Below, piece after piece: positions 2,454 through 63,998 of a stretch of DNA of 64,000 nucleotides (positions are counted from its first letter, which is position 1; each line of letters starts with the position of its first letter). The DNA is from Tetraselmis striata (lineage: Eukaryota; Chlorophyta; Chlorodendrophyceae; Chlorodendrales; Chlorodendraceae), in assembly GCA_006384855.1 (NCBI GenBank), contig VCJN01001892.1, positions 1-64,000 of the forward strand. The letters run 5' to 3'. Made by a program: the position numbers and the translations under genes. Below the pieces are notes generated by a model. It was not told the DNA's origin. It worked only from the letters and a program-made list of their open reading frames with translations, and ran no database searches.

Positions 2454-4105
2454 CTTGTACTGGTGCGCGTATCAATGATGGCGATGAGCGCACATCCTTC
2501 CCCAATTGTCGTCAAGGCAATAGTCGTCAACAGGCGACAAGGAGAACATCACATCAACGCAGCAACCCTCGCCGAGCTGGTGCTGATTGCTTCATTGCAG
2601 GCGGGGGCAAGTGGGTTAGAGAGAGAGAGAGAGATACATTACAATCATAAATGAATTGGCGTGGCTAAAGGGCATCACGCGGCCCGTGGGTCCGACGCTA
2701 GAGCCCTAAGGGCAAGTGGGTTAATTAGATGTGACAGATAGAATGTGGCCCGGGGATTAACGGATTAAATAGCATGCAGGAAGGGTCATGAATAGGACCG
2801 GTACTGAGCAGTCAACACCGCAAGGTAATCATCCATGTGTGTCGCGGTATCAAGATGCGTTCTATTATTGGTGACGTATTATCACAATCGAAGCGACATC
2901 CGCCTCAAAAGCACAATGCTTGCCACACGGCCGAGTGATATCCTATAATATGTACTTGTTGTACCCCCATGTTCACATCGTACACGTACCCGTAGTAGCA
3001 TATATAGACGTCGTACTTGTCACACTACCCCCTCCCCCGGCGAGATATCAATTATCGGTTTCGGTAGGGATTGAAACCGATGTGACGACCTCTACATTCT
3101 ATGTCCCTGGATGGAGAACTCATGCTCCGAAAACCAGTGTAACAATCGAGGCGACATTCGCCTCCGCACGTCGAGTACCCTTCCATGCTACTCCTTGACG
3201 CTTCGGTGGCACGACTCTAAGCAGAGTCCGATACGCATAATTTCACCGCAGGCACGGTCGTGCCCCCGCCTTCTCTGCTCCGGGATCCGTGGATGATGCA
3301 TGCACCTCCCAGGTCTCAGTCAGATAGACCCCCCCCCCCCCCCCAACACACACACACAAACGTTCTGAGTGACTCATTCTATATATGACTGTATTAAGCC
3401 AGTGAAGTCATTTCCCCTGCTTTAGCAACCATGTACTTCCAGCTGCTTGACAGCAACACTGAGGGGGGTCTCGGGGGTCTCTGTTATTGTAGAGCGAGTG
3501 ACTTCGAGTTGTGGTGGTTGGGTCCCTTAGTCGGAGGCTCGATCCCTGTCGGGGGCAGGTTTCTTAATATCATCGTCATGGCGGCTCCACGCGCTATAAG
3601 GAAGTGGTCGCTATTCCTGGCTCATTGTAATATCACCACAAACATACTACGAAATTCAAGTAAGTGCGGTCACCGACCCCCAAGGGTCTTAAACCGTGTC
3701 TTTATTATAGGTGCGTCGGCACCCGTAGTAGTAATAGTAGTTGTAGTACTAGTAGCGCAGTAGTAGTAGTAGTGTAGTACTAGTACTAGTAGTAGAGGGA
3801 GACAGAGACAGAGAGGAAGAGAGGGAGAGGCAGAGAGAGACGAAAATGAAATCGGAATTGAAATTTGGTACGACGCGCTAGTCTGCCGCTCTCCACGGCT
3901 CAGATTGACTTGTTCTGAGGGCCTGCTATCTCTAGCCGCTATGGGAAACAAGTGGTGATATCACAGCTCAAGCTACCGGCCGGCCTCTTTTGTGCCCACG
4001 TCCCTCCTTCCGTCTCTTCTTTCCAGCGGGTTGGTCTCAGGGGCGGCGGCTGCGTCGAGGGAAAAGCTGAGAATACTGGCCGACTGGCTTTCGACCCACA
4101 AGGGG

Positions 4106-16006: not shown

Positions 16007-18039
16007 CTAGTCGGACTCGCCGTTGTAGTCGGACTCGTCCGACTCGACAATCTCCACTTCGCTGTCCTCCTCATCGCTGTCCTCCACAACATACGTTTTC
16101 CGCGCAGCGGCAGCAGCGCGGCGAGCTGGGCGACGGCCACCCGCCGGCTGGACGGGAGCCTCCGAGGGGGCGGCCTCGTCTTCGTCCTCCTCATCGACGG
16201 TCTCAATGGGCGGGGATTTGGGCGCGGGCGTGGTGGCCATGGCCCCGCTCCCCTTGTGGAAGGGCGACTCGCGCATGCGGCGCACCTTCAACGACTGCGC
16301 CACCGCAGGCGAGGGCGACTCGAGCTCATAGTCCATCGCGCCAGACCTGGTGGGCTGCGGCGTGGGCGGCACATCGCTGGCCACCTTCTTCTTGGGTGCG
16401 GGCTTGCGCTTGGCAGCCGCAGCAGCGGGTTGCTTCTTGGCGGCTGCCTTCTTCTTGGCAGGGTGCGGCGACATGATCTCCGGCTCGCCCTCGCTCTCTG
16501 AGCTGCTGTCGTCCACCTCGATCTCCGCGTCAGACTCCGAGTCGTCCGAGAGCATCACCGCCTTGCTGCGGGCCTTGGAAGCCGCGGCGCGGGGCGCACG
16601 GGCAGGCGCCGGCTTGCTGGCCTGAGGGGCGGTGGCCTTGGCTACCTTCATCTTTGCCAGCCGATCCGCCAGGCTGCCAAAGGACTTTGCGTCCGCCTCT
16701 TCCACAACTGTGGCCTCCTGTCAGGATCCATTTCCAGCGCAGGTGTCAGCACATTGCCGACACGCACACGGAAATGTGAAACTGAAAATACCTGCAAGAA
16801 CTAGTACTCCGAAATTCTCACACGTCAGTCTCACCACACCCAACGCAGACACCCATGTGACAGAGAAAGCAAACAGCCCCATTTATATGTTCTGTGATTC
16901 TAAAGGGTATATCATGTATAGCCACTGGTAACCAAGGAAATAGCAGCACTGCTGCCTCGCGGGCTACTCACCGGCTCAGACACCGCGGACTCAGGCACCA
17001 GGACGGGAGCGGCTGCAGCCACAGCCGCGGCCTTGGGCTTGGGAGCTGGCGCCTTTCGTGCGGCAGGGGCCCGCTTGGCAGGGGCAGCCTGAGAGGACGC
17101 CAGCGGAGAGGGATAATGTCAGCGGCCCTATCAAGGAGCAACCTTCGAACAAAGCAGTGGCAATAGAGCCTGATCCCTAAAGTGCAATCACCTTCGAGGC
17201 CGCCTTGCTGCTGGGCGCCCAGTCGTCGTCAGACTCGGAGCCCTCATCGCCCGTGCGAGCCTTTCCACGCGCCTTGCCGCCCCCAGCCCGCTTCCGGGCA
17301 GCCAGCTGCTGCTTCGCCACCTTGGCGTCCTCCGCCTCCTTGTCCGCCAATGCCTCCAGGAAGGCGTCCAGGTCGTCCTCCCACATCTCGCGCGCGGTGG
17401 TGCTCTTCAGCCGCTCCACCTCCTGCGTCTGCGCGTCCGCGTCGTCCTTGAGCGCCTCCACGCGCTCCAGGGTCAGGCTCCAGATTGGCATGGACAAGAG
17501 GTAGTCGTAGCTCAGCGCTGCAGCGGCCGCGGCGTCCGCCTCCTCATCACCGTCCTCCGGATCAGCGGCCACAGTTACCGCCTTCTTCTTGGTGCTGGGC
17601 AGCGCGTCATAGCCGCGCGCCACCAGGTCCGCCTCGATGTCCTTCTTCTTGCGGTTGTTCACCACCATCTTGCCATCAATCACCTCCAGGATAAAGCGCA
17701 TCTTGTTGGTGAGGCGCTGCAGGTCCGCCTCCGCACACTACACAGCACATCAAGCCATATCAGCGCGCCACACTGAGACCCCGCATGCCAGGGCAAGGTG
17801 GGCGCCCACCAACACAAAGGCGGCAATGGCAGTGAGTCACACCTGAATGAGGCTGGCACGGCGCTTATCGTAATACGAGAGGCGCAGGTCATAGAACTCC
17901 TCCAGGATCTCCTCCGGGGTGTCAAACTTGCGGATGACGCCGTTCTTGTCCCAGAGCATCATGTTGCCTGCGCGCCAAATACAACCCGCTCAGCGAATGA
18001 CAAACCAGGCATGACTTCACATAGCGATCGCACAGTGAC

Positions 18040-18070
<31 letters not shown>

Positions 18071-21052
18071 AGGCGGGGGACCTGTGGAGATGGTGCTTTG
18101 CAACTTGAACTTCTTCTCAATACCCGCCTTGACGGCCTCGGCCAGCTTATCCTGTGACAGCGCCACGCTGAAGTGAACAGTGGTGTCGGTGTGATACTCC
18201 TTGTAGTCGGTGATGAAGGGAGTCTCGGCCTTGTTCTCCGGCTTAATGAGAGCCTCCAGGTACTCCTTGTAGTCCTGCGTCCACTTGCGCACCGGCAGCT
18301 CGGTGATATCCAGGCCGCCCTCCGACTGCTCAAACACGCCGGTCACCTGGTAGGTGCGCCCGCCACTCTTCGTGGTCACCTCTTCGATGGAGCCCTTGAA
18401 GTGGTTGTACCACGGCAGCATGGCCACCTGCTCCTCGCGCCGCATGAGGCGCTTGAGGTTGGCAACGATGTCGCGCGGGTTGTAGTTGGGGATCGAGGTA
18501 GACCAGCCCGTGCCAATACCGTCCGCGCCGTTGATCAGAACCATGGGCAGAATGGGCATGTACCACTCCGGCTCGATGGTCTGCCCCTCCTCGTCCAGGT
18601 AGTTGAGCAACTTGTCGTCGCCGGCGTTGAAGATGTGGCGGGCCAGGGGCGCGAGCCGGGTGAAAATGTACCTGGGGCTGGCCGAGTCCTTGCCGCCCTG
18701 GAGGCGGGTACCAAACTGGCCGCTGGGGACGAGCAGGTTAATGTTGTTACTGCCGCAGTAGTCCTGGGCAAGGCCAACGATCGTGGAGGCCAGGCTGGTC
18801 TCGCCGTGGTGGTAGGCCGAGTGCTCCGCAACGTAGCCGCTCAGCTGCGCCACCTTGATGTCGCTCTTCAGATTGCGCTTGAAGCACGAGTAGAGGATCT
18901 TGCGCTGGCCAGGCTTCAGGCCGTCTACCATGGAGGGAATGGAGCGGAAAAGGTCAGCGCGCGAGAAGAGGATGAGCTCCTTGTGAACAAACTCGCTGTA
19001 GGAGATCGTGTCGCCGCTCTGGTCCAGGAAGGTGCCGGGCTGGTACTCGCGCAGCCACGTCTTCCGGTCCTCCACGCGCTTCTTGGAGAAGGCCATTGAG
19101 AGGCTGTCGCCATCCTCATCTCCCTCCCACACAAACTCCTTCTTGTGGTCTGTCAGTGCGGCGAAGTACTCCTTGGCCTCCTTTGCGGTGGATGTACCCA
19201 GACCTGCAGACGCGTCGCCATGCAGCGGATGGTGAGCGCAATTGCAATGATACAGCATTGATGACACCATGAACACCATGATAGCTGCAAGAAGATAGGG
19301 TAAATGGGGGAGAGGGAGGGTAGTACCTTTGTAGTACTTGATGGACCAGCCACGCGCGCTCGTCAGCGACTCGCGCCACGATTCGTACTCAGGCAGCGTG
19401 TAGAAAACACGCGAATCACGGCCCTTGGAGGCCTTGATGATAGGCGTGATGAACTCAACAAGGAAGCCGGGCACCTTGAGCAGCGACGGGTAGAAGTGGT
19501 GGATGAAGTTCATGATGAGGCCCTTGATGTGCGAGCCATCCTGGTCCTGATCTGTCATGATCATGATGTGCCCGTAGCGCAGGCCCTTGGTATCGTTGTA
19601 AACCTTGCCGTGCTGCAGGCCCAGGATCTGCTTGATGTTGTTTATTTCCGCGTTGTTCATGATCTGGGTGTGGCTTGCGTCGCGCACGTTGAGCAGCTTG
19701 CCTCGGAGCGGGAAGATGCCGTACTTGTCGCGACCCACGACGCTTAAGCCGCTCACCGCCAGCGTCTTGGCAGAGTCACCCTCCGTCAGGATGAGCGTGC
19801 AGCTCGCTGAATTGCGGCCACCAGCGTCATTGGCGTCGTCCAGCTTCGGAATGCCCACCAGGCGCTGGCGCTTGGCGCCGTCATTCTTCTTCAGCTCCTT
19901 GGACTGCTTGAAGGCGGCGTATGACAGGATGTTCTCCATGATCCCGCAGTTGGCCACCTTCTTCAGGAAGGCGTCAGACAGCGCGCACTTTGAGCCAAAG
20001 CAGGAGGGCTTGAGCGTCAGGTTCTCCTTGGTCTGCGAGTCGAACGCCGGATTCTCGATGTGAGAGTTGACAAACACCCAGAGGTGGTTCTTCACGTGGT
20101 TGGCCTTTACGCCTGCGTTCTTGTTCTTCTTGGAGATGAGCTCCACCAGTTTCCTGCAGACCGAGCCTTGATATGTCAGTCATCAAGTCAAGGCCAAAGA
20201 AAGGGGATGGGGTGGCAGGCAGAATGTGAACCGTCAGCGTGCTGGGCAAGAGCTCACCCTGCGATCTGGTCGGTCACATGCACCACGTGTGTACCGCCCT
20301 TGTAGGTGCAGATGGAGTTGGCGAAGCTGACCTGCAGGCCACACCAGTGGCGACTAAGACGGGAGTGGGCTTCTTGGACGCACAAGCAGAGGTGCATGGT
20401 AGCTTGGGTGGGACGGGGGCAGCCTGGCACGCACCTGCTGGAAGCTGCCGTCACTAACGCTGATGCAGACCTCCCATCGGTCGTTGGCCTTCTCATAGAT
20501 GCGCGGAGCGCCGTTGTCCTTGGGGCCGAGATATAGCTCCACGTACTCCTGGAAGCTCTTGCATGCAATGCGCTGCCCATTCAGGTACACCTTCACGCCC
20601 TTGCCCAGCACACCCGCCAGGTCGTACACGCGCTTCTTCATCAGCTGCACCGTCTCCTCCTCCAGCTCCGTCATGCCAAACTTGGCCAGGTCGGGCTTGA
20701 ACTCCACGGCCGTCCAGTTGTCGCTGGCCTTGCACTTGGTGATCTTGGGGTTGCCCTTCACCGTCATGTTCTGGGTGAAGACCTGCTTATACCTGCGCCG
20801 CCAGGGACACCCCTTGTCTCAGCCTCAAGGGCCGCCGTGAGCGCACTGGCGGTAGGCAGTGGCGGCCTGCCCCTCACCTCTTCTCCCGCGAACCATCCGC
20901 CGTCTCCACGGTGAACTCGGTGGAGAATATGTTGGCCAGCTTGGCGCCATAGCCGTTGCGCCCACCCGTGATCTGGTGCAGGTCACAGGGCAGGGGTCAT
21001 GTTGCGCCCAGAAAGGGGGACGGGGTGGGTGTGGGTGTGTGTGGGTGTGTGT

Positions 21053-21109
<57 letters not shown>

Positions 21110-26711: not shown

Positions 26712-27503
26712 ATAGACAAGGATTCTTCGGGAACTGTTAGGTGGAGTACCTGAAGGTCGCTACTGTGTTACGGGGCTACACTACATACACTACGCTATGG
26801 ATTGTCTATGTTGCGCCTCGCCCGCTTCGTCCTGTCCTTGAAGTCGTCAGGTGCTGTCTGGCCAGTCAGTATTGTTTTCCATGTTGCCGCAGACTTTAAA
26901 CCTCTTGAGGGCTTTCTGAGCCGTGTGGCCATAAATCGGGTTGGGGGCTCTAGGGCGTTTGTGATTCACCCATGATGACGACATGCGGCGGGGTAGGAGC
27001 CCAAACGCCCAGCATCACCGCAGGAACACTGACGCATCTTCCGCCTCGGGACCCGCCCAGATTTTGCAGGCGGATGAGGCGGCTGACACGGCGCAGAGCC
27101 TGTTGCAGTCGCTGGAGCAACAGGCGGAGGTTCGGCGAGGGGGAGCGGGGGCAGGGGGGGCAGGCGAGTGATCCTCGGTCCACTGATTCAGTGGCACCTT
27201 CGAATCAATGCCTGAATAATGGCAACATGTGATATAATTACATGATGGTGCTGTGCCTTAACGGGCGGCTCGTGGGCGCATCTGCTGTAATCCGCAGGCA
27301 ATGCCACACGTGCGCATTCTGTGCCGAGGCGCAGCCGGGCGGAAGCTGCCAAGTGCAGCGGTATCGCCACCCTTCCCCACTCGCCCCCTGACTCGCGCTG
27401 AGCACAGTCCCGCCGTCAAGCCAAAAGGCCGTTGCCCCAACAAGCATGCCATGCCCATGTTATACCTGCGCACTGAGCCGGTGCCTTGTCAAACCCTGCG
27501 CAG

Positions 27504-27694
27504 GGCGGCAGCTCGTCCAGCATCTCCCCATCGCGCAGCGCGCGCTGAAGACGATTAGCAACCAGGGGGTCACCGTGGCGGACGGCAAGCGGTACGAGTC
27601 CTGCGCTGTCATTGGCAACTCGGGCAACATGCAGGGCACGCGCTACGGCGCTGTCATCGACACCCACCAGGCAAGGTCGCCCCCCTCCCCACCA

Positions 27695-27752
<58 letters not shown>

Positions 27753-28943
27753 GCGCGCACACACACGCGCGCGCGCGCACACATCTCACTGTGGCATTGG
27801 CAGCGACAGTGGCGCTAACAGTAGCAGCTCCTAGGCCGGTGGGGGGGGGGGGGGTAGGGGGGGGGGCAGATGGCATGGCGTGGGACATCTCAGCGTGGAT
27901 GTCTGCTCAGCACGCTGCACTGCCTCTGGCCCCCGTAGGTTGTGATACGCCTGAACCAAGCGCCGACGGAAGGCTACGAGCCGGTGGTGGGGTCGAAGGC
28001 CTCGTACAGGTGAGTCTCGGCCCTGCCCGCGCCTCCTCCCGCTGCGACCCCTCCGTGCCCCACACCCCACCCCATCCCCCCTCCCAGGATGGCAGATGGC
28101 TGATTCCGAAGGTGGCGCGTCAGGCTGATAAACAAGGAGTGGGTGAAGAAGTACACGGAGGGGCACACAAAGTGGTTGCCGCTGGAGGAGGGAGTCTCCC
28201 TGGTGTCCCGAGGCGATCCGGAGGTGAGACAGCACTGCGGAGTGGCATCCCTTGCGCCCATATCTGTGTCTCCGGGCATGCTGTGAGTACCGGCTGGCTC
28301 TCCCCTTGCTGCTGGTGATGTGTGTTCGTCACGGGCCAGACGCGAGTGCGGCGCGGCGTCTTCGTGTGCATCTTATGCGTCCCCGAATGGGCCAACAAGG
28401 TGCGCCGGGACGTGCAGCATGCGGGACTCCCATCATGCCGGCAGCGCCAGGCCTGGGCGCCTTGCACACTGCCGCACTCACCGGCACGCGCCCCACCATG
28501 TCCCCACGCATGCCATGCTGCAGGCGAAGAAGTTCATGTCGAAGCAGAAGGACCACCAGATTGTGAAGCTCAGCGCCAATTTGCTGGCAAAGGCGTGGCA
28601 CATGGTGAAGAGCTTCATACCGTGCTCCCCTGAAGTGTGAGTGAATTGCCCCCACACACGCATTATGCCTCCCTCCTCTCCTGCCACACACGCGCTCACA
28701 GCCACTACGATTATCAGTGCCCCTTGTACCTGGGGCACGTACTCCCGCTGATGCCTTGGGAGGTGAACTGACGCACGTATGCCTTCCTCTGTCTTTGGGA
28801 TGCCAGCCCAAAGAAGTGTCCGGACTGCAAGCCGAGCAGCGGCATCTTGGCGGTGGCGATGGCGCTGTCGATGTGTGACAAGGTCACGGTCTACGGCATG
28901 GCAGGCACCCGCGTGACGCATGCCGGCTGGCCATACCAGTGAG

Positions 28944-36287: not shown

Positions 36288-36537
36288 TCATCAAATATTT
36301 GCGGGCATGCAGACGTAGGCGTCATTTATAAAACACAGGGGCACGCCGGAGTCTAAAGCATGGTAGGAAGCGGCAGGTTGGGACGGTCGGGCAATTTGTG
36401 TTTTAACAGCTGCAATAAGTTGTTTTCGGACATAGAGGTTACGAAAGCGTTTTCGGTTTCAAAGCGGGGCTGATGCGACTATTATCGGGCACATAGGTCT
36501 GACCTTGAGACTATGTGGCAGCTATACTCGTACCGAT

Positions 36538-37546
36538 ACTCGGCTGCCCGATACCGATACGAGTACAGCGCAATATACCGGTACTCGGCTGCACGTGTAC
36601 CGGCTATATGGCTATATATGTTCAGACCCATGTACGAAAATGCCATGTGTACACACAAGTCGCCATATTTTCAATTGATATGTGTACACACATGTTAACA
36701 TTTGCATGTGTATACACAGGTCGATACCGTTATGACCTGTGTGTACACAGGTCATGTTTACTTTGACCCGTGTACACACATGTCACTTTTTATGACCCAT
36801 GTACAAACAAATCAAAGTGATCATGACCTGTGTATACACGGGTCACCAATGATACCTAAAACCCGACACCTTGTTTGCACATGGGGGCATCTGTGAAATG
36901 GCATGGGTGAAAACATGTACTTGGGTCATATGTCGTATATATGACATGTGTACAAACAAGGCAGCCATGTTCGCACTTTGGTCATTTTCCATGACCTGTG
37001 TGTACACATGGCGATTTCAAGTGATCTGTGTATACACATGTCATTGTCAAAATGATCAGTGTGTACACATGTCAATGCAAGTGACCCGTGTGTACACATA
37101 CATGGCAAGTGACCTCTGTGTACACATGGCGATTTCAAGTGACCTGTGTATACACATGTCATGGTCAAAATGACATGTGTGTACACATGTCAATGCAAGT
37201 GACCTGTGTATACACAGGGCATTTTGACCACGGGTCGTAACATGGGTCTCAACATATATGCGGCTGCCCGCAGGTATATGACATGCTCGGATCTTCCGTA
37301 GCGGCGTTATTGCTTGCACTGGTTTCTCGGAGCCTTGGCTACGATCCAAAGGGTCACTTATTCGATTTCCCTATCACCCGGAAATTAGTCGTCCATGGAT
37401 GGGACAAGATGGAATGTTAGCTACATTCGTACATATATTCGGCTGCCCGTTATCGATACGAGTACAACGCGATATACCGGTACTCGGCTACCCGTGTACC
37501 GGCTAGATATGCGGCTGCCCGCAGGTATATGACATGCTCGGATCTT
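36538..37546. repeat. Direct repeats framing the palindrome array
   Basis: A block of about 68 bp at 36538-36606 (cggctgcccg, taccgatacgagtac, atataccggtactcggct) recurs at 37439-37505. A separate identical 40-bp block, starting atatgcggctgcccgcaggt, occurs at 37256-37295 and 37507-37546. The array therefore sits inside a larger duplicated structure. Confidence 0.8.
36640..37222. repeat. Array of 16 imperfect 24-bp palindromes, about 30-bp period
   Basis: Each unit is an inverted repeat centred on TGTGTRTACACA, usually flanked by TGACC on the left and GGTCA/TGTCA on the right. One copy (36732-36755) is a perfect 24-bp palindrome. Centres in the dense blocks (36744-36835, 37002-37212) are 27-32 bp apart, mostly 29-31. 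A higher-order period of 118 bp (four units) is visible: gcgatttcaa at 37011 and 37129. Because the units are palindromic, both strands appear to encode CVYTG/CVHTG-type peptides; I do not regard these as proteins. No homology to a known element was recognised. Confidence 0.85.
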
Positions 37547-38260
37547 TTGTATTGCTTTCACTCTAGCTCAAGAGCATGAACTTGTTTGAACCGCCACAGA
37601 CTGTCGGTGTGCGTGGTGGCTGCATGGTCGTCGACACTGTGGTTGGCAAAATAGACATCGATGATGTAGTTGGTCGGTGGCATAAACAGGTCGTCAGTGG
37701 CAAATGTGGCAGTGTGGGACAAATATGTGCCGGCCGGGTACGGGTGGATGAGGTGGCACTTGGGCAATTGGGGCGCCGGGACTGAGTTCACTATCCGAGC
37801 GCGGGGAAAGAAAAAGAATGGCACGAGTGACAGCGATTCACTCTTAGCACGACTACTTACCCTATATACATCGCGCAACCGCGGGGAAACATTCGTATCT
37901 CAAGGTATCTCCGGTACCACATACTTCTACTTTCAAGCCGCCGTACTAGGGCGGTATATGGGGTTACTACCAAAAACTTTTACATCAAGGCTTTAATTAA
38001 CATGGCCCAAGGGGCAACATGAGTACGGCAACATGGGTGACTACTAATCGCACCCTTAGCCGTACCACGCGGGGCGCCTATCAATCCTTACCGCCGTGTC
38101 ACATGGGGGTGAATAAACTCATTCTCCCCATATGACCGATAGCCGATGTAGCAGACGGTATAATGTGTGTACAAAAATTCGGACGAACCGCGTTTAACGC
38201 AGAAGCAAAGCAGTAAGGATACGCGGGCCATAGTTGTAGTCCCTACTTAGTCCTTTTGTT
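37547..38260. other. No gene recognised
   Basis: A 108-codon plus-strand frame (37670-37996) and a minus-strand frame overlap here, but neither shows a domain. The segment separates the palindrome array from satellite A. Confidence 0.4.
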
Positions 38261-40496
38261 GTGGTCGCCAGGTACCGTCACATTGCGCGGGAAAATAATG
38301 CGCATACGGGCAACCATGAGATGCACGACGAACGAAGCGGACACGGTCCGGCATGTTGGGGCTAGTGCGGATGGCCTCTTGTACGGTGCCGCGGTTTGGC
38401 GCCGCAAACCGCATGGCGCCTCAAGCACAGAACGCGCCTTACCGGAGCCGTCACAAAGCGCAACAAGAGAACGCCCATACGGGCAATCATGAGTTGCACG
38501 AAGCAGACGGGCTCCGACATGCCGCATATCGTGTGGATGACCGCTTGGCGGTGGCGTGCCGTGGTTTGGCGCCTCAAACCGCATGGCGCCTCAAGCACGG
38601 CACGCGCTATACCGGAGCCATCACAAAGCGTGGCAAAAAACCCCGCATACATGCAACCTTGAGATGCACGAAGCGGACACGATCCGACATGCCGCGGCTC
38701 GTGCGGATGACCGCTTGGTGCCGTTCTGCGGTAGGTGTGGCGCCGCAAACCGCATTTCGCCCCTAAAATACATGCGCCTCAAGCACAACACACGCTTTAC
38801 CGGAGCCGTCTCAAAGCGCGCCCGTCGGGCCGCACGCATACGGGCAGCTTCTAAGGGACGAGGCATACACGCTCTATTATGCCGCGGCTCGTCCGGATGG
38901 CCGCTTGGCGGCGCGGAGTGGCGCCATAAACCGCACAGTGGACATGCGTATGGTTTTGGAAGAGTGTATTTAATGTGACATAACGCGCACTACCGAAGCC
39001 GCCCCGAAGCGCGGCAAGGGAATGCGCATACAAGGAAATGTCAGTTGAACGAAGGTGACAAGTTCCGACAAGCATGCCGCATTCCGTGCGGATGACCGCT
39101 TGGTACCGTGCTGCGGTTTGGCGCCGCAAAGTGCATGGCGCCTCAAGCACGGTGCGCTCTATACCGGAGCCGTCACAAAGCGCGGCAAGGAATGCGCATG
39201 CGAGCAAACATCAGTTGAACGAAGCTGACAAGCTCCGACATGCCGCATATCGTGCGGATGACTGCTTGTTGCCGTGCCGTGGTTTGGCGCCTCAAACCGC
39301 ATGGCGCGTCAAGCACGGCACGCGCTATACCGGCGCCGTCACAAAACGCGGCCAAAAACACCGCATACATGCAACCACGAGTTGCACGAAGTGGACACGG
39401 TCCGACACGCCGCGGCTCATGCGGGTGACCGATTGGTACCGTTCCGCAGTCCGGCCCCGTAAACCGCCATTACATATACATGCGCCTCAAGCACGGCACG
39501 CGCTTTACCGGAGCCGTCACAAAGCGCGCCGGTCGGGCCGCGCGCATATGGGCAAGCATCTAAGGGACGAGGCAAACACGCTCTAACATGCCGTGGCTCG
39601 TCCGGATGGCCGCATGGTGCCGCGGAGTGGCGCCATAAACCGCACGGCGCCCATGCGTATGCTTTTGGAAGAGTGTATGAACGGTGATGGAGCGCGCACT
39701 ACCGGAGCCGTCAAGAAGCGCGGCAAGGAATGCGCATGCGAGCAAACATCAGTTGCACGAAGCTGAAGCTCCGACATGCCGCATCTCGTACGGACGACCG
39801 CTTGGTGCCGTGCCGTGGTTTGGCGCCTCAAACCCCATGGCGCCTCAAGCATGGCACGCGCTATACCGGAGCCGCCACAAAGCGCGGCCAAAAAACGCAC
39901 ATACAGGCAACCACGAGTTGCACGAAGCGGACACGATCCGACACGCCGCGGCTCGTGCGGGTGACCGCTTGGTACCGTTCCGCAGTCCGGCCCCGTAAAC
40001 CGCATTGCGTCCCTACATATATGTACATGCGCCTCAAGCACTGCACACGCTTCACCGGAGCCGTCATAAAGCGCGCCCGCCGGGCCGCACGCATATGGGC
40101 AAGCATATAAGGGACGAGGCAAACACACTCTAACATGCCGCGGCTCGTCCGGATGGCCGCATGGTGCCGCGGAGTGGCGCCATAAGCCCCACAGTGGCCA
40201 TTAGTATGTTTTTTGGAAAAACTATTTACAGTATTAGAACGCGCACTACCGGAGCCGCTACGAAGCGCGGCAAGGAATGGGCATGCGAGCATACATCAAT
40301 TGCACGAAGCGGACACGGTCCGACATGCCGCATTTCGTACGGATGACTGCTTGGTTCTGTGCCGCGGTTCGGCGCCTCAATTGCACGGTGCCGCCTCGAG
40401 CACGGCACGCGCTATACCGGCGCCGTCTCAAAGCGCGGCAAGAGAACGCACATACGGGAGCCGTGAGTTGCACGAAGCGGACACGGTCCGACATCA
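38260..40496. repeat. Satellite A, array 1: 165-195-bp monomers in a three-monomer higher-order repeat
   Basis: The anchor accggagccgtcacaaagcg recurs at 38441, 38611, 38799, 38992, 39163, 39329, 39507, 39701, 39865, 40054, 40248 and 40416. Spacings are 170, 188, 193, 171, 166, 178, 194, 164, 189, 194 and 168 bp. Three monomer types alternate. A (about 168 bp) carries ggtttggcgcctcaaaccgc. B (about 188) ends tacatgcgcctcaagcac. C (about 194) carries a ggaagagtgtat tail. The order is ABC ABC-like, with one extra A at 39163-39329. All monomers share cgaagcggacacggtccgac- and accgcttggtgccgt-like blocks. Translated frames in it are repeats, not genes. Confidence 0.92.
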
Positions 40497-57519: not shown

Positions 57520-58450
57520 TACAGCAAGGCCGCCCACCTTGCGACTGGCGTCGCTTCTTTTGAGGCCGGTTGCGACTATGCGGCAGCAAGGCGAGGGGGT
57601 GCGTCGCTCGTGCAGCTAGCAGTCGGGGGGATGTGGGTAGTAGGTTGAACGCGCGATGGCGACATAAGTAGCAAGCCATAAAATGCAAAGGTGGACAACA
57701 ACATTATGTCGCAGCAAGGCCGACCACCTTGGCGGTGTGCGTCGCTTCTTTTGAGGGCGGCTGCGACTCGTTGGCGGCGGGCGAGGAGATGCGTCGCTTG
57801 TGCCAGGTTTTGCACCCGGGGATGTGGGTCGAACGTGCGACGGCGACATTATAACTAGCAAGCCGAAAACTGAAACAGCCCAGCATAGCCTTATCTCGCA
57901 AAAAGGCCGCCCACCTTGGCGACTCGCGGCGCCTCTTGCAAGCCGGCTGCGACTCGTCGGTAGCAAGGCGAGGGGGTGCGTCGCTCGTGCCAGCTTTTGC
58001 ACTTGGGGGCTGTCGGACGAACGTGCGATGGCGACATAATTAGCAAGTCGGAAACTAACTAAAACAACCTAGCATAGCCTTACAGCATCGCAGCAAGGCC
58101 GCCCACCCTTGCGACTTCCCGGCGCCTCTTGCGAGCCGGCTGCGACTCGTCGGCAGCGAAGCGAGGGGGTGCGTCGCTCGGGGGCTGTGGGTCGAACGTG
58201 CGATGGCGACATAATTAGCAAGCCGAAAACTACAGAAGCCCAGGATAGCCTTACATCGCAGCACGGCCGCCCACCTTGGCGACTGGCGTTGCTTGTTTTA
58301 AGGCCTACTGCAACTCGTCGGCAGCGGGGGCATGGAGTGCGTTGCTTGTGCCAGCTTTTGCAGTCGGATGCTGTGGGTCGAACATGCTATGGCGACATAA
58401 TTAGCAAGCCGTAAAATTACAAAGGTGCACCACAACATTATATCGCAGCA
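57520..58450. repeat. Satellite B, block 1 (about 184-bp monomers)
   Basis: The anchor gtcgaacgtgcgatggcgac recurs with gcgatgg at 57653, 57837, 58025, 58200 and 58386 (steps 184, 188, 175, 186). Each monomer contains aaggccgcccaccttg, gaggccggctgcgactcg, gggggtgcgtcgctcg and ataattagcaagc. It is unrelated in sequence to satellite A. Confidence 0.92.
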
Positions 58451-58455
58451 CGGCC

Positions 58456-58489
<34 letters not shown>

Positions 58490-58833
58490 ACCCTGCCCTC
58501 CATCCCGCCTATTCCGCATATCTTTTAGTGGACATGGTGGTTGTCGCACCTTTAGCCTCCGAGCCGCTGGCATCCGGCACGCCCTCACCCCCGCCTAATG
58601 CGAGCGCAAGTCCTAAGAGTGTGGCTGCCGACGCGCCGGCTCCCTGCCCGCCGCTCTCCCCCGCATGGCTATCGCCAGGCGTAGGCAAGCCCTCGGCCGC
58701 ATCGCCAGCGGCAGCCGCCAAACTCGGCGACATGTCCGCCGCTGGCGGGCCCTGCCCCTGACCCGCCACTGCCTGCGTATCGGCCCAGCTAGGTCCAACG
58801 GCAAGGGCCGCCACGCGACGAGAGCGTTTGGCA
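58451..58833. repeat. Poly-C plus about 375-bp unit, copy 1 of a duplicated segment
   Basis: A C run (about 58457-58486) and following sequence (gacatggtggttgtcgc, agcctccgagccgc, gagagcgtttggc at the end) recur at 60780-61137. On the minus strand it reads as Ala/Gly-rich protein (TPGDSHAGESGGQGAGASAA), probably not coding. Confidence 0.85.
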
Positions 58834-58859
58834 TGCGGGTCAGGAGCAGCGCCGCGAGG

Positions 58860-59260
58860 GGGTTCGTCGCTCGGGCCAGCTTCTGTGCTTGGGGTCTGCG
58901 GGGGCCAACGTGCGATGGCGACTCAATTAGCATGCCGTAAAAGTAACAAGTGCGCAACGGCAATAAAGGTGCAGCGGGTCCAACCCACCTTGGCGACATG
59001 AGGCGCCCCTGTCGAGGCCGGCTGCGACTCGGGAGCAGCGCTTCGAGGGGGTGCGTCGCTCGGGCAAGCCTCTGCGCTCGGGGTATGCGGGGCCAACGTG
59101 CGATGTCGACTCTATTAGCGAGCCGTAAAAGTAATAGGTGCGCAATGGCAACATACGTGCGGCGGGGCCAACTCACCTTGGCGACTCGCGGCGCTCATGT
59201 CGAGGCCGGCTGCGGCTCGGCAGCAGGCACGCGAGGGGGTGCGTCAACACGACTGCCATA
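58860..59260. repeat. Satellite B, block 2 (diverged)
   Basis: Two monomers with anchors at 58912 and 59100 (188 bp), carrying caacgtgcgatg and cgactc changes not seen in the other blocks. Confidence 0.8.
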
Positions 59261-59719
59261 CAACACGACTGTCACTCCGAGTACCAGGTCACCAAGGCGC
59301 GCATTGTCGCGTATACCAACAATAGGCGAGGATTGCTGCCCTTGCAACTCCTTGCAAGCCGTCCACAGAGTTTGTTGTCGACTGAAGTGCGTTTCTGCGG
59401 GCGACTATGGAGTTTCCTGCGACTGCGACGAGTCCAGAAGGTGCCGGCAGTGCAGCCACCTTTATCTCTGGCGGGCACTTTTGCATACATCACCAGAGTC
59501 TCAGGCTCCGCTGCGCCCGGCACCACTTCAGCGGTGCCCACCCCATAGTAGAGCTGGCCATCATGCGCTCCGCCCTCCTCCTCACGGCCGCGCTTGGAGC
59601 CAGCACTACCCTGCCCGCGTTTGCCCTTGCCTTTTCCCCATGTTTGCTTCTCCCGGCCTGCACAGGCGTCACCAAAGAATTGCCGCCACTGTGAGCAAAC
59701 TGTGAGGGTCGTTCGGGCC
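59261..59719 (-). other. Unique island between satellite blocks
   Basis: The minus strand holds a protein-like frame: SQWRQFFGDACAGREKQTWG, then KGKGKRGQGSAGSKRGREEE and DGQLYYGVGTAEVVPGAAEP. It might be an exon, but no partners were found. Confidence 0.3.
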
Positions 59720-60780
59720 TTTTGCAGCGGGGGCAGCGGGTGCCCCGCTCGTGCCAGATTTTGCAGTCGGGAGGTATGGGTCGAATGTGCGATGGCGCCT
59801 ACATAATCAGCAAGTCGGAAGCTAAAAAAACCCAACATAGCCTCACATCGCAGGCGTCGCTTCTTTTGAGGCCGGTTGCGACTATGCGGCAGCAAGGCGA
59901 GGGGGTGCGTCGCTCGTGCAGCTAGCAGTCGGGGGGGGGGGGGGGGGGGGAGATAGGTCGAACGCGCGATGGCGACATATTTAGCAAGCCATAAAAATGC
60001 AAAGGTGGACAACAACATTATGTCGCAGCAAGGCCGCCCGCCTTGGCGACGTGCGTCGCCTCGGTTGAAGCCGGCTGCGACTCGTCAGCATCGGGCGAGG
60101 GGGTGCGTCGCTCGTGCAAGGTTTGGCACTCGGGGCTATCGGTGGAACGTGCGATGGCGGCATAATAATTAGCAAGCCGGAAACTACAAAAAGACTAGCT
60201 TAACCTTACATCGCAGCAAGACCGCCCACCCTTGCGACTGGTGGTGCCTGCGAGCCGGCTGCGACTCGTCGGCAGCAAGGCGAAGGGGGTGCGTCGCTTG
60301 TGCCACATTTTGCACTCGGGGGCTGTGGGTGGAACGTGCGATGGCGACATAATTAGCCAGTCGAAAACTAAAACAGCCTAGCATAGCCTTACATCGAAGC
60401 AAGGCCGCCCACCGAAGCGACTGGCGTCGCTTCATTTGAGGCCGGCTGCGACTCGTCGGCAGCAAGGCAAGGAGGGTGCGTCGCTCGTGCTTTGCAATCG
60501 GGGGCTGTGGGTCGAACGTGCGATGGCGACATAATTGCAAGCCGAAAACAACAGAAGCCCAGAACAACATTACATCGCAGCAAGGCCGCCCACCTTGACG
60601 ACTGGCGTTGCTTTTTTTGAGGCCGGCTGCAACTCGTCGGCAGCGGGGGCAGGGAGTGCGTTGCTCGTGCTAGTTTTTGGAGTCGGGGGCTGTCAGTCGA
60701 ACGTGCAATGGCGACATAATTAGCAAGCCGTAAGAATGCAAAGGTGCACCACATTACCACAGCATTACATCACAGCACGG
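59720..60780. repeat. Satellite B, block 3
   Basis: Anchors at 59789, 59966, 60151, 60338, 60520 and 60705 (steps 177, 185, 187, 182, 185). A G run interrupts the array at about 59933-59950. Same orientation as block 1. Confidence 0.92.
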
Positions 60781-62489: not shown

Positions 62490-63998
62490 TCATGAAGGAG
62501 GCACTGGGAAGGCCACCGCTGCGGAGTCCTGTTGGACTTGGAAGTGGCGGAGAGGGGCGATGTGTCCAAAGAAGAACCACGCGCCAGGAGAAGGAAGAAC
62601 GTTGGGGTCGATGTAGTCCAGAACGACATCAGAGTTAGTGGCCCAACCGCCCTGGTAGCGGATGTGGGACAGTGGCGCTCCAATGGCGTTTGCTGCAGAG
62701 GCTGCGCCCTTGCGTAGACTGTGTGAAGTCCAGGAAGTGCCAGCAGGGGGGGCAGCGTTGACTAGGTTGACTGCTGTAGACAACCAGTCTGACATCGTAG
62801 TAGCAGTCCAAGGTTTCGACTGCTCAGCCACATTGACAGCCCAGAAGTTGGAGGTAGCCAAGCCAACAGTAACCAGGGGGACAGACTGGACGTTGTCGAT
62901 GAAGTAGCGCAAGAGACGTGCCACTCGAGGGTGCTCGGACACTGGAAGGAGAAGTACGCGCAGGTCGTCAGGTCCCCGCCGGCCGGCGCGACCCTTCTCG
63001 CGGTAGATCTGCAAGGTGATGTTGTAGGTGTCGACATGCACATCTTGCACTCGACAGGAGACGCCAGTAAGGCCCCTGGCAAAGAACAGGAAGTTGACAA
63101 CCGAGGCCAAGAGGGCTCGGTAGTCGAGGTGGGACTCTGGGTAAGGAGCAGACACAATTAGCTCGGCCTTTGAGACGAAGCGGTAAGCTACATCCGCAGG
63201 CAGAGGGACACGCAAAGGGGCAGCGTCCAGTCGACGCTGACGTAACATTAACCCACGTCTTGCCGAAGTGAGGTGTAGGCTGTCCTTGGCGATCGGGACG
63301 AGGTTGTGCAGCTCGAAGGAGGTGTTGATGGCAGACAGATAGGGCTGCAGCGACTTAGCTGCGATATGCCCTCGCTCCCCGATCCAGGCAACGTACCGAA
63401 CAACAGTAGCAGTAGTCGCCTCTAGCGGGCTGATGTTCTCGGAGTCGTGGCAGAACTCAGCGAACTGAGCCAACCTGCCGGCGTAGCTCTTGAGGGTCTG
63501 AGCGCTGAGGGAGCTGGAGAGCAGGTCGAGCGTCCGCTGGCCTAGCTCGTCTGAGCCGAACGCGTCCTGTAGTCGGGATCGCAGTGACGCAGCCCACGGA
63601 GCGATAGCTGCGGGCTCGTCGATTACGTAAGTGCGTCGTTTTACTGACAGAGTGCCACCGGGACGGCTACTGTTCGCAAAGTACTCGGCAGCAGCGGTTA
63701 GGTTCCCGGCGGTTGGCCGGTAGTTGCTGGACGGGTTTGCAGTAGCTCCAGTACGGGTTTGCGGGGCTAGGTTCAGGTAGGAGGGCCGCCCCGCGCGCCC
63801 TTCGCGCTCATAGCGCCTGTCCCGTGCGTAACGTACACGCGCGAAACTTGGTCGTTGCGAACCGGTTGTAACTCGTAGTGTAACAACCGACGAACGCAGA
63901 GATGGGGTTGTAAGAAAGGCGGATGGTTGAGCCGCCATGTGCAGGTGTGCGGATGGTTGAGCCGCACTCGGCTGTAGCTGTAAGAAGCGCCGCACCGA
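62490..63998 (-). CDS. Tyrosine recombinase of a DIRS/Ngaro/Crypton-like mobile element (5' end beyond the window)
   Basis: The frame stays open to the window edge; the first ATG is at 63938. Residue numbers count from the left end of a 501-codon frame. An N-terminal core-binding-like domain (LSAQTLKSYAGRLAQFAEFC, about 163-182) precedes the catalytic domain. The expected residues are present: Arg307 in FLFFARGLTGV, a Lys in YREKGRAG (about 334), HSLRKG with His425 and Arg428, Trp451 in QGGW, and the nucleophile Tyr461 in VVLDYIDP. HSLRKGAASAA is characteristic of eukaryotic YR elements. Such recombinases integrate a circular DNA intermediate. No RT or RNase H is visible in the window. The frame is uninterrupted, so it may be active. 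It ends 80 bp before the direct repeats at 62.1-62.4 kb. Confidence 0.85.
   Translation of the reverse strand, partial: SVRRFLQLQPSAAQPSAHLHMAAQPSAFLTTPSLRSSVVTLRVTTGSQRPSFARVRYARDRRYEREGRAGRPSYLNLAPQTRTGATANPSSNYRPTAGNLTAAAEYFANSSRPGGTLSVKRRTYVIDEPAAIAPWAASLRSRLQDAFGSDELGQRTLDLLSSSLSAQTLKSYAGRLAQFAEFCHDSENISPLEATTATVVRYVAWIGERGHIAAKSLQPYLSAINTSFELHNLVPIAKDSLHLTSARRGLMLRQRRLDAAPLRVPLPADVAYRFVSKAELIVSAPYPESHLDYRALLASVVNFLFFARGLTGVSCRVQDVHVDTYNITLQIYREKGRAGRRGPDDLRVLLLPVSEHPRVARLLRYFIDNVQSVPLVTVGLATSNFWAVNVAEQSKPWTATTMSDWLSTAVNLVNAAPPAGTSWTSHSLRKGAASAANAIGAPLSHIRYQGGWATNSDVVLDYIDPNVLPSPGAWFFFGHIAPLRHFQVQQDSAAVAFPVPPS

What the first reader, a model, noticed from the sequence alone, without database searches (positions are those of the whole stretch)
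36640..37222. Helically phased array of 16 near-palindromic 24-bp units
Units with the core CCTGTGTRTACACABG and TGA/TCA arms repeat mostly every 29-31 bp, about three helical turns, so the dyads face the same side of DNA. Some copies diverge in outer bases but keep the dyad (ACCTGTGTGTACACAGGT and ACATGTGTACAAACAAG variants), suggesting selection on symmetry or slippage with a palindromic template. A 118-bp higher-order period is also visible. It looks like an operator cluster for a dimeric DNA-binding protein, an origin-like array, or a foldback satellite. I know of no named element with this form.
Basis: partly seen in the sequence, partly recalled or inferred. Interest (0 to 1): 0.72.

Follow-up and report, generated by a model that had tools for sequence, protein, structure and literature searches.

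The report
Algal jumping gene with palindrome arrays
The repeat array is the inside of a short, non-coding jumping gene related to the Ginger2 transposons, and related transposon families in the same genome carry similar arrays built from their own palindromes, which most likely are docking sites of the enzyme that moves them.

Summary
The array is real: 16 units scoring at least 16/22 against TGACCTGTGTRTACACAGGTCA, all at 36641-37221, none elsewhere in the window. It is not a free-standing operator cluster or satellite. It fills a 636-bp non-autonomous DNA transposon, 36619-37254, with inverted termini (TGTTSAGACCCATGT), a TATA target-site duplication and a nearby empty paralogous site. The same arrays form both ends of 3.6-4.7-kb elements with pieces of a gypsy/IS481-type integrase. 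Termini, 4-bp TSDs and target fit Ginger2/Tdd; phylogeny was not tested. The new part: three related families, integrase pieces about 50-65% identical to this one, carry the same kind of array on other palindromes (CCATGTGNACATGG, TTGTTTGCAAACAA, ACACATGTGCACATGTGT). Both half-sites differ together between families. This favours family-specific sites for a dimeric transposase; no binding was tested. Against selection within one array: arms are not compensated, and units are not consistently better conserved than linkers. Spacings cluster near 20 and 27-33 bp, only loosely helical, and hardly so in family D. Verdict: new variant of a known kind.

The parts
36615..36618 (.). left target-site duplication TATA
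   Evidence: identical to 37255-37258 directly outside the termini
36619..37254 (.). 636-bp non-autonomous transposon (family A, MITE-like) that contains the whole array
   Evidence: inverted termini, TSD, relatives with the same ends; empty paralogous site
36619..36636 (+). left terminal inverted repeat core TGTTCAGACCCATGTACG
   Evidence: this end type has 82+86 matches (up to 2 mismatches) in the genome against 0 control hits
36641..36845 (.). left block of 7 dyad units (starts 36641, 36676, 36702, 36733, 36764, 36793, 36824), derived from the left end of the long element
   Evidence: element positions 28-227 match L006 element 76-273 at 85%
36824..36845 (.). unit shared by the left-end and right-end matches: probable junction of the internal deletion that made the short element
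   Evidence: the two best BLAST matches overlap at element positions 206-227, which is this unit; alignments
36942..37221 (.). right block of 9 dyad units (starts 36942, 36992, 37022, 37053, 37082, 37110, 37140, 37171, 37200), derived from the right end of the long element
   Evidence: element positions 206-544 match L006 element 3253-3594 at 84.6%, 492-604 match 3422-3534 at 93.8%
36992..37216 (.). 118-bp tandem duplication of a four-unit block (the higher-order period)
   Evidence: 1.9 copies, 93% matches
37237..37254 (-). right terminal inverted repeat core (reverse complement TGTTGAGACCCATGTTAC)
37255..37258 (.). right target-site duplication TATA
37419..37562 (.). paralogous copy of the flanks without the element (empty site)
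   Evidence: joined flanks align to it across the insertion point; direct repeats D14 and D15

Best explanation
The feature is a short internally deleted copy of a Ginger2/Tdd-like cut-and-paste DNA transposon in a genome that encodes chlorophyll a/b-binding proteins. It keeps the two ends of a 3.6-4.7-kb parent and lost the gene between them, probably by a deletion between two array units. The array is the subterminal part of both ends. Most likely each near-palindromic 22-bp unit is bound by a dimer of the element's own integrase-type transposase; several dimers spaced about two to three helical turns apart would load the transposase on each end, help to pair the ends, and let the protein tell its own family from its relatives by the variable bases of the half-site. 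Shown: element limits, TSD, relatives, integrase pieces, and the link of one integrase family with one palindrome family in the copies examined. Inferred: that the units are bound, that the transposase binds them, that binding is dimeric, and that the window copy was moved in trans.
For: Termini and TSD: 12 of 16 non-redundant insertions have identical 4-bp TSDs and the other 4 differ by one base (taken from 19 rows, of which L028, L032 and L034 were dropped as repeats of an insertion already counted; L014, L026, L027, L033 are further repeats; where one search gave several pairings of ends for one locus I took one). Array pairs 3.1-4.5 kb apart, start to start, at L006-L010 and L015. 18 candidate head-to-head pairs of exact termini, picked by me from the cut listing, span 134-4741 bp: 11 of 2.9-4.7 kb, 4 of 0.62-0.72 kb, 3 others. 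Integrase: one family-B copy joins by GT-AG introns into H2C2 plus D-58-D-54-E; IS481 transposase model 2.5e-13; rve 1.1e-3 and H2C2 0.043. Family-specific dyads: consensus units of A, B, C, D pair at 10, 10, 11, 11 of 11 positions. Of 20 family-B integrase hits that I selected, 19 have B units 1.33-1.38 kb upstream and 17 have them 3.0-3.1 kb downstream. Genome counts against the reversed control: A 1287+1314 versus 7+3, B 447+432 versus 7+7, D 470 sites versus 0. In A, half-site positions 4 and 10 hardly differ between copies (1.0% and 0%; 4.2% and 0% in left and right arrays); position 1 in the left and 8 in the right array also show none. Precedent: Hermes BED domains bind subterminal repeats, cooperatively at a quasi-palindrome (PMC10368747, passages).
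Against: Arms within the window array are not compensated. Comparing four A copies with L010, unit cores differ less than linkers in the left array (8.8% versus 12.5%) but more in the right array (9.0% versus 2.2%), so purifying selection on units is not shown. Pfam scores of the integrase lie under curated cut-offs, the IS481 score (50 bits) is far under that model's cut-off (224), and no solved structure matched the joined protein by sequence. No DNA-binding domain was tied to the unit. At the right end of one C element only 5 units score, against 8-10 at left ends. The genome-wide count for C could not be run. Phasing is weak in D.
Confidence: 0.72

Rival explanations
1. The arrays are a by-product: a palindromic unit in the terminal repeat was multiplied by slippage and unequal exchange, and persists because it hitchhikes with the transposon. 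Only the outer ~40 bp matter for transposition.
For: One 118-bp block duplication; locus pairs with shared flanks differ in element length by 27 and 39 bp (L019/L034, L029/L032); no arm compensation within the array; no consistent conservation of units over linkers.
Against: Four families keep the same design with different palindromes, symmetric in each; unit slots keep much the same spacing order across copies; slippage alone does not explain why both arms differ together between families.
Confidence: 0.17
2. The units are host transcription-factor or insulator sites carried by the transposons (promoter or silencing control).
For: Dyads of about 18-22 bp at two- to three-turn spacing resemble operator arrays; one array sits upstream of the integrase gene.
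Against: Arrays also lie at the downstream end, and the motif switches with the transposon family in one and the same genome, which a single host factor would not predict.
Confidence: 0.07
3. A free-standing satellite, replication origin or centromere-like array.
For: Tandem near-palindromic organisation.
Against: Units dispersed over many contigs, and in the loci examined they lie in short elements or paired ends of long ones, most with TSDs.
Confidence: 0.01
4. In addition to the main reading, the arrays act as landing sites: the A unit core GTATAC is a Ginger2-type target, and family B inserts into it.
For: L044: a family B element sits in the core of an A unit with TATA duplicated. 12 of 13 zero-mismatch hits of A half-unit plus terminus are B ends, on 9 contigs, where about 0.16 ends would be expected from 225 exact A cores (rough estimate from RTATAY density in the window).
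Against: Three of the loci (C22, C1007, C2441) share the insertion offset of 55 bp, so some may be one composite copied; insertions in transposons may survive better; the expectation is rough.
Confidence: 0.2

Closest known systems
Ginger2/Tdd DNA transposons (Bao et al. 2010, PMC2836005; parts 1-2 of 5 of the text read, plus a term search)
   Same: TGTNR termini, inverted ends, 4-bp TSD, AT-rich target like RTATAY, H2C2 plus DDE integrase, no GPY/F or YPYY motif found in the frames searched, non-autonomous short forms
   Different: Arrays of near-palindromic subterminal units with family-specific sequence; the terms palindrom- and subterminal have 0 occurrences in that paper's main text. D2-E spacing of 54 residues in the joined copy.
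Hermes (hAT) transposon with subterminal repeats (PMC10368747, passages)
   Same: many short transposase-binding motifs in both ends (17 and 14 by that paper), a quasi-palindromic pair bound cooperatively
   Different: hAT superfamily, BED zinc finger, a short AAGT motif with only two pairs arranged as palindromes, not arrays of long dyads
IS481EU / IS481 (PMC10045372, passages)
   Same: related DDE core (IS481 model 2.5e-13), TG..CA ends in IS481
   Different: by that paper IS481EU lacks the HHCC motif and has TSDs of about 4, 15 or 25 bp

Membership tests
Ginger2/Tdd | termini 5'-TGTNR | tested here: met
   TGTTG or TGTTA at most ends of A-D read here; exceptions: window left end TGTTC, L045 (D) TATTA, L039 (C) TACTA
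Ginger2/Tdd | 4-bp (4-5) target-site duplication | tested here: met
   12 of 16 non-redundant insertions (15 A, 1 B) identical, the other 4 one base off
Ginger2/Tdd | target preference RTATAY | tested here: met
   of the 12 with exact TSD, 9 are TATA, 11 have R before and Y after, 8 are full RTATAY, the window copy (ATATAT) among them
Ginger2/Tdd | H2C2 zinc finger followed by DDE integrase core | tested here: met
   motif pieces in A-D; full H2C2 + D-D-E seen joined in one B copy only; IS481 model 2.5e-13; but rve 1.1e-3 and H2C2 0.043 are under Pfam cut-offs, a conserved Cys reads S in the C piece L040, and no E exon was found in the fetched D stretch
Ginger2/Tdd | no GPY/F and no YPYY motif | tested here: inconclusive
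   no YPYY in three forward frames of L041 (part of an element), L044, L010; two GP[YF] strings, which I place in an array and an intron; a motif split by an intron would be missed
Ginger2/Tdd | terminal inverted repeats of about 45-297 bp | tested here: inconclusive
   in L006-L010 the ends are identical for the first 20-33 bp and match at 40-42 of the first 45, then run into the arrays
Ginger2/Tdd | integrase clusters with TDD-4 and Ginger2 in a tree | not tested
   no Ginger2 reference proteins on hand
Ginger1 | CCGG/CCGT TSD, GPY/F motif, OTU or Ulp1 domain | tested here: not met
   TSDs are mostly TATA-like; no OTU or Ulp1 match in Pfam scans of the pieces submitted
LTR retrotransposon | direct long terminal repeats | tested here: not met
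   termini are inverted; reverse transcriptase was not looked for beyond the Pfam scans

The most novel reading that the evidence does not exclude
In one genome, at least four lineages of a Ginger2-like transposon have each re-coded the same place of the half-site on both arms of their units (A CTG, C TTG, D ACA in the frame TGAC-nnn-TKT; B CCA before TGT with a variable outer part), so that arrays of such dyads act as a family barcode read by a co-evolving dimeric transposase; and the A array, whose core is a Ginger2-type target sequence, also serves as a landing site for its relatives.
Probability: 0.3. Interest if true: 0.72.

Novelty: new variant of a known kind. Interest (0 to 1): 0.52.

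Why it matters
How eukaryotic integrase-like DNA transposases find their own ends has, to my knowledge (recalled), been little studied. Four sister families in one genome, each with a different palindrome repeated roughly 5 to 17 times per end, are a natural experiment on how a transposase and its binding site change together, and on why some transposon ends need many binding sites.

Tried and rejected
Rfam and tRNA searches: nothing in the window. Pfam on single integrase pieces: mostly nothing, best rve 1.1e-3. Solved structures by sequence: no convincing match. Arm compensation inside the window array: not found. Conservation of units over linkers: inconsistent. L047 seemed to lack an array; later listed D units at C489:58896 and 58957, beyond the stretch fetched. 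Family D right end: no terminus found in the fetched piece. Papers: the listings show no title or abstract start on palindromic arrays in Ginger2 in that open library (each lists only its best 10-15 papers; one search found 2 papers with Ginger2, palindromic and transposon, seen as listing only); in PMC8226300 a passage search found no Ginger transposon (the one match is a surname). Pfam on window ORFs to place the host: ordinary eukaryotic genes only.

Full report
Observation. Scanning the window with TGACCTGTGTRTACACAGGTCA gives 16 units with at least 16 of 22 matches, all at 36641-37221; 60 simulated order-1 sequences of window length gave 0.27 on average, at most 2. Ten of 15 spacings are 29-31 bp. 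The 118-bp period is a single doubling of a four-unit block at 93%.

Element. The array lies in a 636-bp element, 36619-37254, with inverted ends TGTTCAGACCC / TGTTGAGACCC (15 of the first 20 bases equal) and TATA on both sides. A copy of the flanks 0.9 kb away (37419-37562) lacks it; the joined flanks align to that copy across the insertion point. In the genome (G000, 224 Mb, 2903 contigs) the terminus has 82+86 matches with up to 2 mismatches against 0 in the reversed control and the unit 1287+1314 with up to 3 mismatches against 7+3. The window copy with its flanks also lies, 99-100% identical, on contigs C205 and C2511, perhaps as haplotype or segmental copies, so these count as one insertion.

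Parents. L006-L010 are 3.6-4.7-kb elements with such arrays at both ends; L015 is alike but cut at its right end. TSDs are TACG, TATA, TATT, TATA, TATA for L006-L010. The window element matches positions 76-273 and 3253-3594 of the L006 element, and the two best matches overlap in exactly one unit, 36824-36845, which suggests deletion between units.

Gene. Interiors encode pieces of a gypsy/IS481-type integrase: H2C2, IDLIDYQ or VDLIDYQ, LQADNGREF and the like, SPSNGGxERFNR and the like, and a Cys-rich C-terminal stretch. In one family-B copy, L041, GT-AG introns join five open stretches into H2C2 plus D-58-D-54-E (the 5' start of the gene is not in this join). That protein scores 1.1e-3 with rve and 0.043 with H2C2, both under cut-off; its first 278 residues score 2.5e-13 with the IS481 transposase model (50 bits, cut-off 224). 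The names of the motifs are recalled; the strings are from the calls.

Four families. Searches with integrase pieces found relatives (85 matches; 100 matches). Family B (L044, L041, L043): CCATGTGNACATGG units; L044 586-5083 is a 4498-bp element with TATA on both sides. Family C (L038, L039, L040; 61-65% identical to the A piece): TTGTTTGCAAACAA. Family D (L045, L046; integrase hits 53-59% to the A or B piece): TGACACATGTGCACATGTGTCA. In the copies examined each integrase family goes with one unit: A 2 of 2 (C39, C1496); B 20 of 20 selected hits on at least one side (19 upstream, 17 downstream; selected for about 85% identity or more, near-full length and contigs inside the cut listing); C 3 of 3; D 2 of 2 by sequence and a third (C489) by listing only. 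Consensus units from left arrays pair at 10, 10, 11 and 11 of 11 positions. Set side by side at TGT, the bases before it are CTG (A), CCA (B), TTG (C; with TTT for TGT) and ACA (D), and TGAC precedes them in A, C and D; in B the outer part is variable. So the family-specific bases differ on both arms. This is my reading of the consensuses; four families are few and no tree of events was made.

Spacing. Slots fall mostly at 20-21 and 27-33 bp, with some 17s in B and D. 55 slot spacings, taken by hand, give a resultant of 0.56 at 10.5 bp and 0.53-0.55 at 10 and 11; by family 0.68, 0.55, 0.65, 0.27. Two- to three-turn spacing is supported; strict phasing is not.

Results against. Arm compensation inside the window array was looked for and not found. 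Units are not consistently better conserved than linkers among A copies. One C right end has few recognisable units.

Nested insertions. In L044 family B sits in the TATA of an A unit core. 12 of 13 zero-mismatch hits of CTGTGTATA plus terminus are B ends, on 9 contigs; B ends total 96+89 with up to 1 mismatch, exact A cores 225; a rough expectation is 0.16 ends. C22, C1007 and C2441 share the offset of 55 bp from the A terminus, L044 has 83 with a degenerate A terminus, so events may be fewer than contigs.

Host. 63 chlorophyll a/b-binding matches; one of them (L050) matches light-harvesting proteins in the PDB best (6kac, among the top, is a Chlamydomonas entry from recall). A green-plastid eukaryote, perhaps a green alga, is likely but not shown.

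Comparison. Ginger2/Tdd features are taken from PMC2836005. Hermes subterminal repeats from PMC10368747 passages. IS481EU from PMC10045372 passages. The mechanism (transposase dimers on each dyad) is an inference by analogy; no binding was tested. Confidence: element identity about 0.95, Ginger2-like about 0.85, arrays as transposase sites about 0.7.

Noticed in passing
L044 586-5083; G000 C22, C98, C1007, C1985, C2017, C2240, C2441, C2500: Family B ends abutting the TATA core of family A half-units (L044 read in full; the others from the listing).
   Followed up: partly
L019/L034 and L029/L032: Pairs of loci with the same flanks (probably the same insertion) differ in element length by 27 and 39 bp; possible unit-number variation.
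   Followed up: no
window 36480-37600; C205:118862-119984; C2511:25748-26866: Element and flanks present three times at 99-100% identity; perhaps haplotype or segmental duplicates in the assembly.
   Followed up: no
window 38275-40493: Satellite-like repeats of about 166-170 bp in many copies.
   Followed up: no
window 57522-60730: Second repeat field with periods of 181-188 bp.
   Followed up: no
window 62490-63995 (-): 501-aa ORF with weak tyrosine-recombinase matches (Phage_int_SAM_1 1.7e-6, Phage_integrase 1.1e-3), perhaps a Crypton- or DIRS-like element.
   Followed up: no
window 18017-20146 (-); 27446-28318 (+): Topoisomerase II gene and a piece with a sialyltransferase family match (GT29, 4.8e-7).
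   Followed up: no
window 21053-21107 and others: Long poly-G runs, one of 55 bases.
   Followed up: no
L010 5759-6038; L015 7284-7717: Repeats of about 75 bp inside the transposase region, a peptide repeat (PAASEPMAEDAAAPP...), apparently in more copies in L015 than in L010.
   Followed up: no
L006 5818-6183; L044 4485-4673: Cys-rich C-terminal stretch of the transposase (KCSCKGPCKTNACACRKA... in L006), only weak metallothionein and CXC matches for L006 and none for L044; a candidate DNA-binding part.
   Followed up: partly
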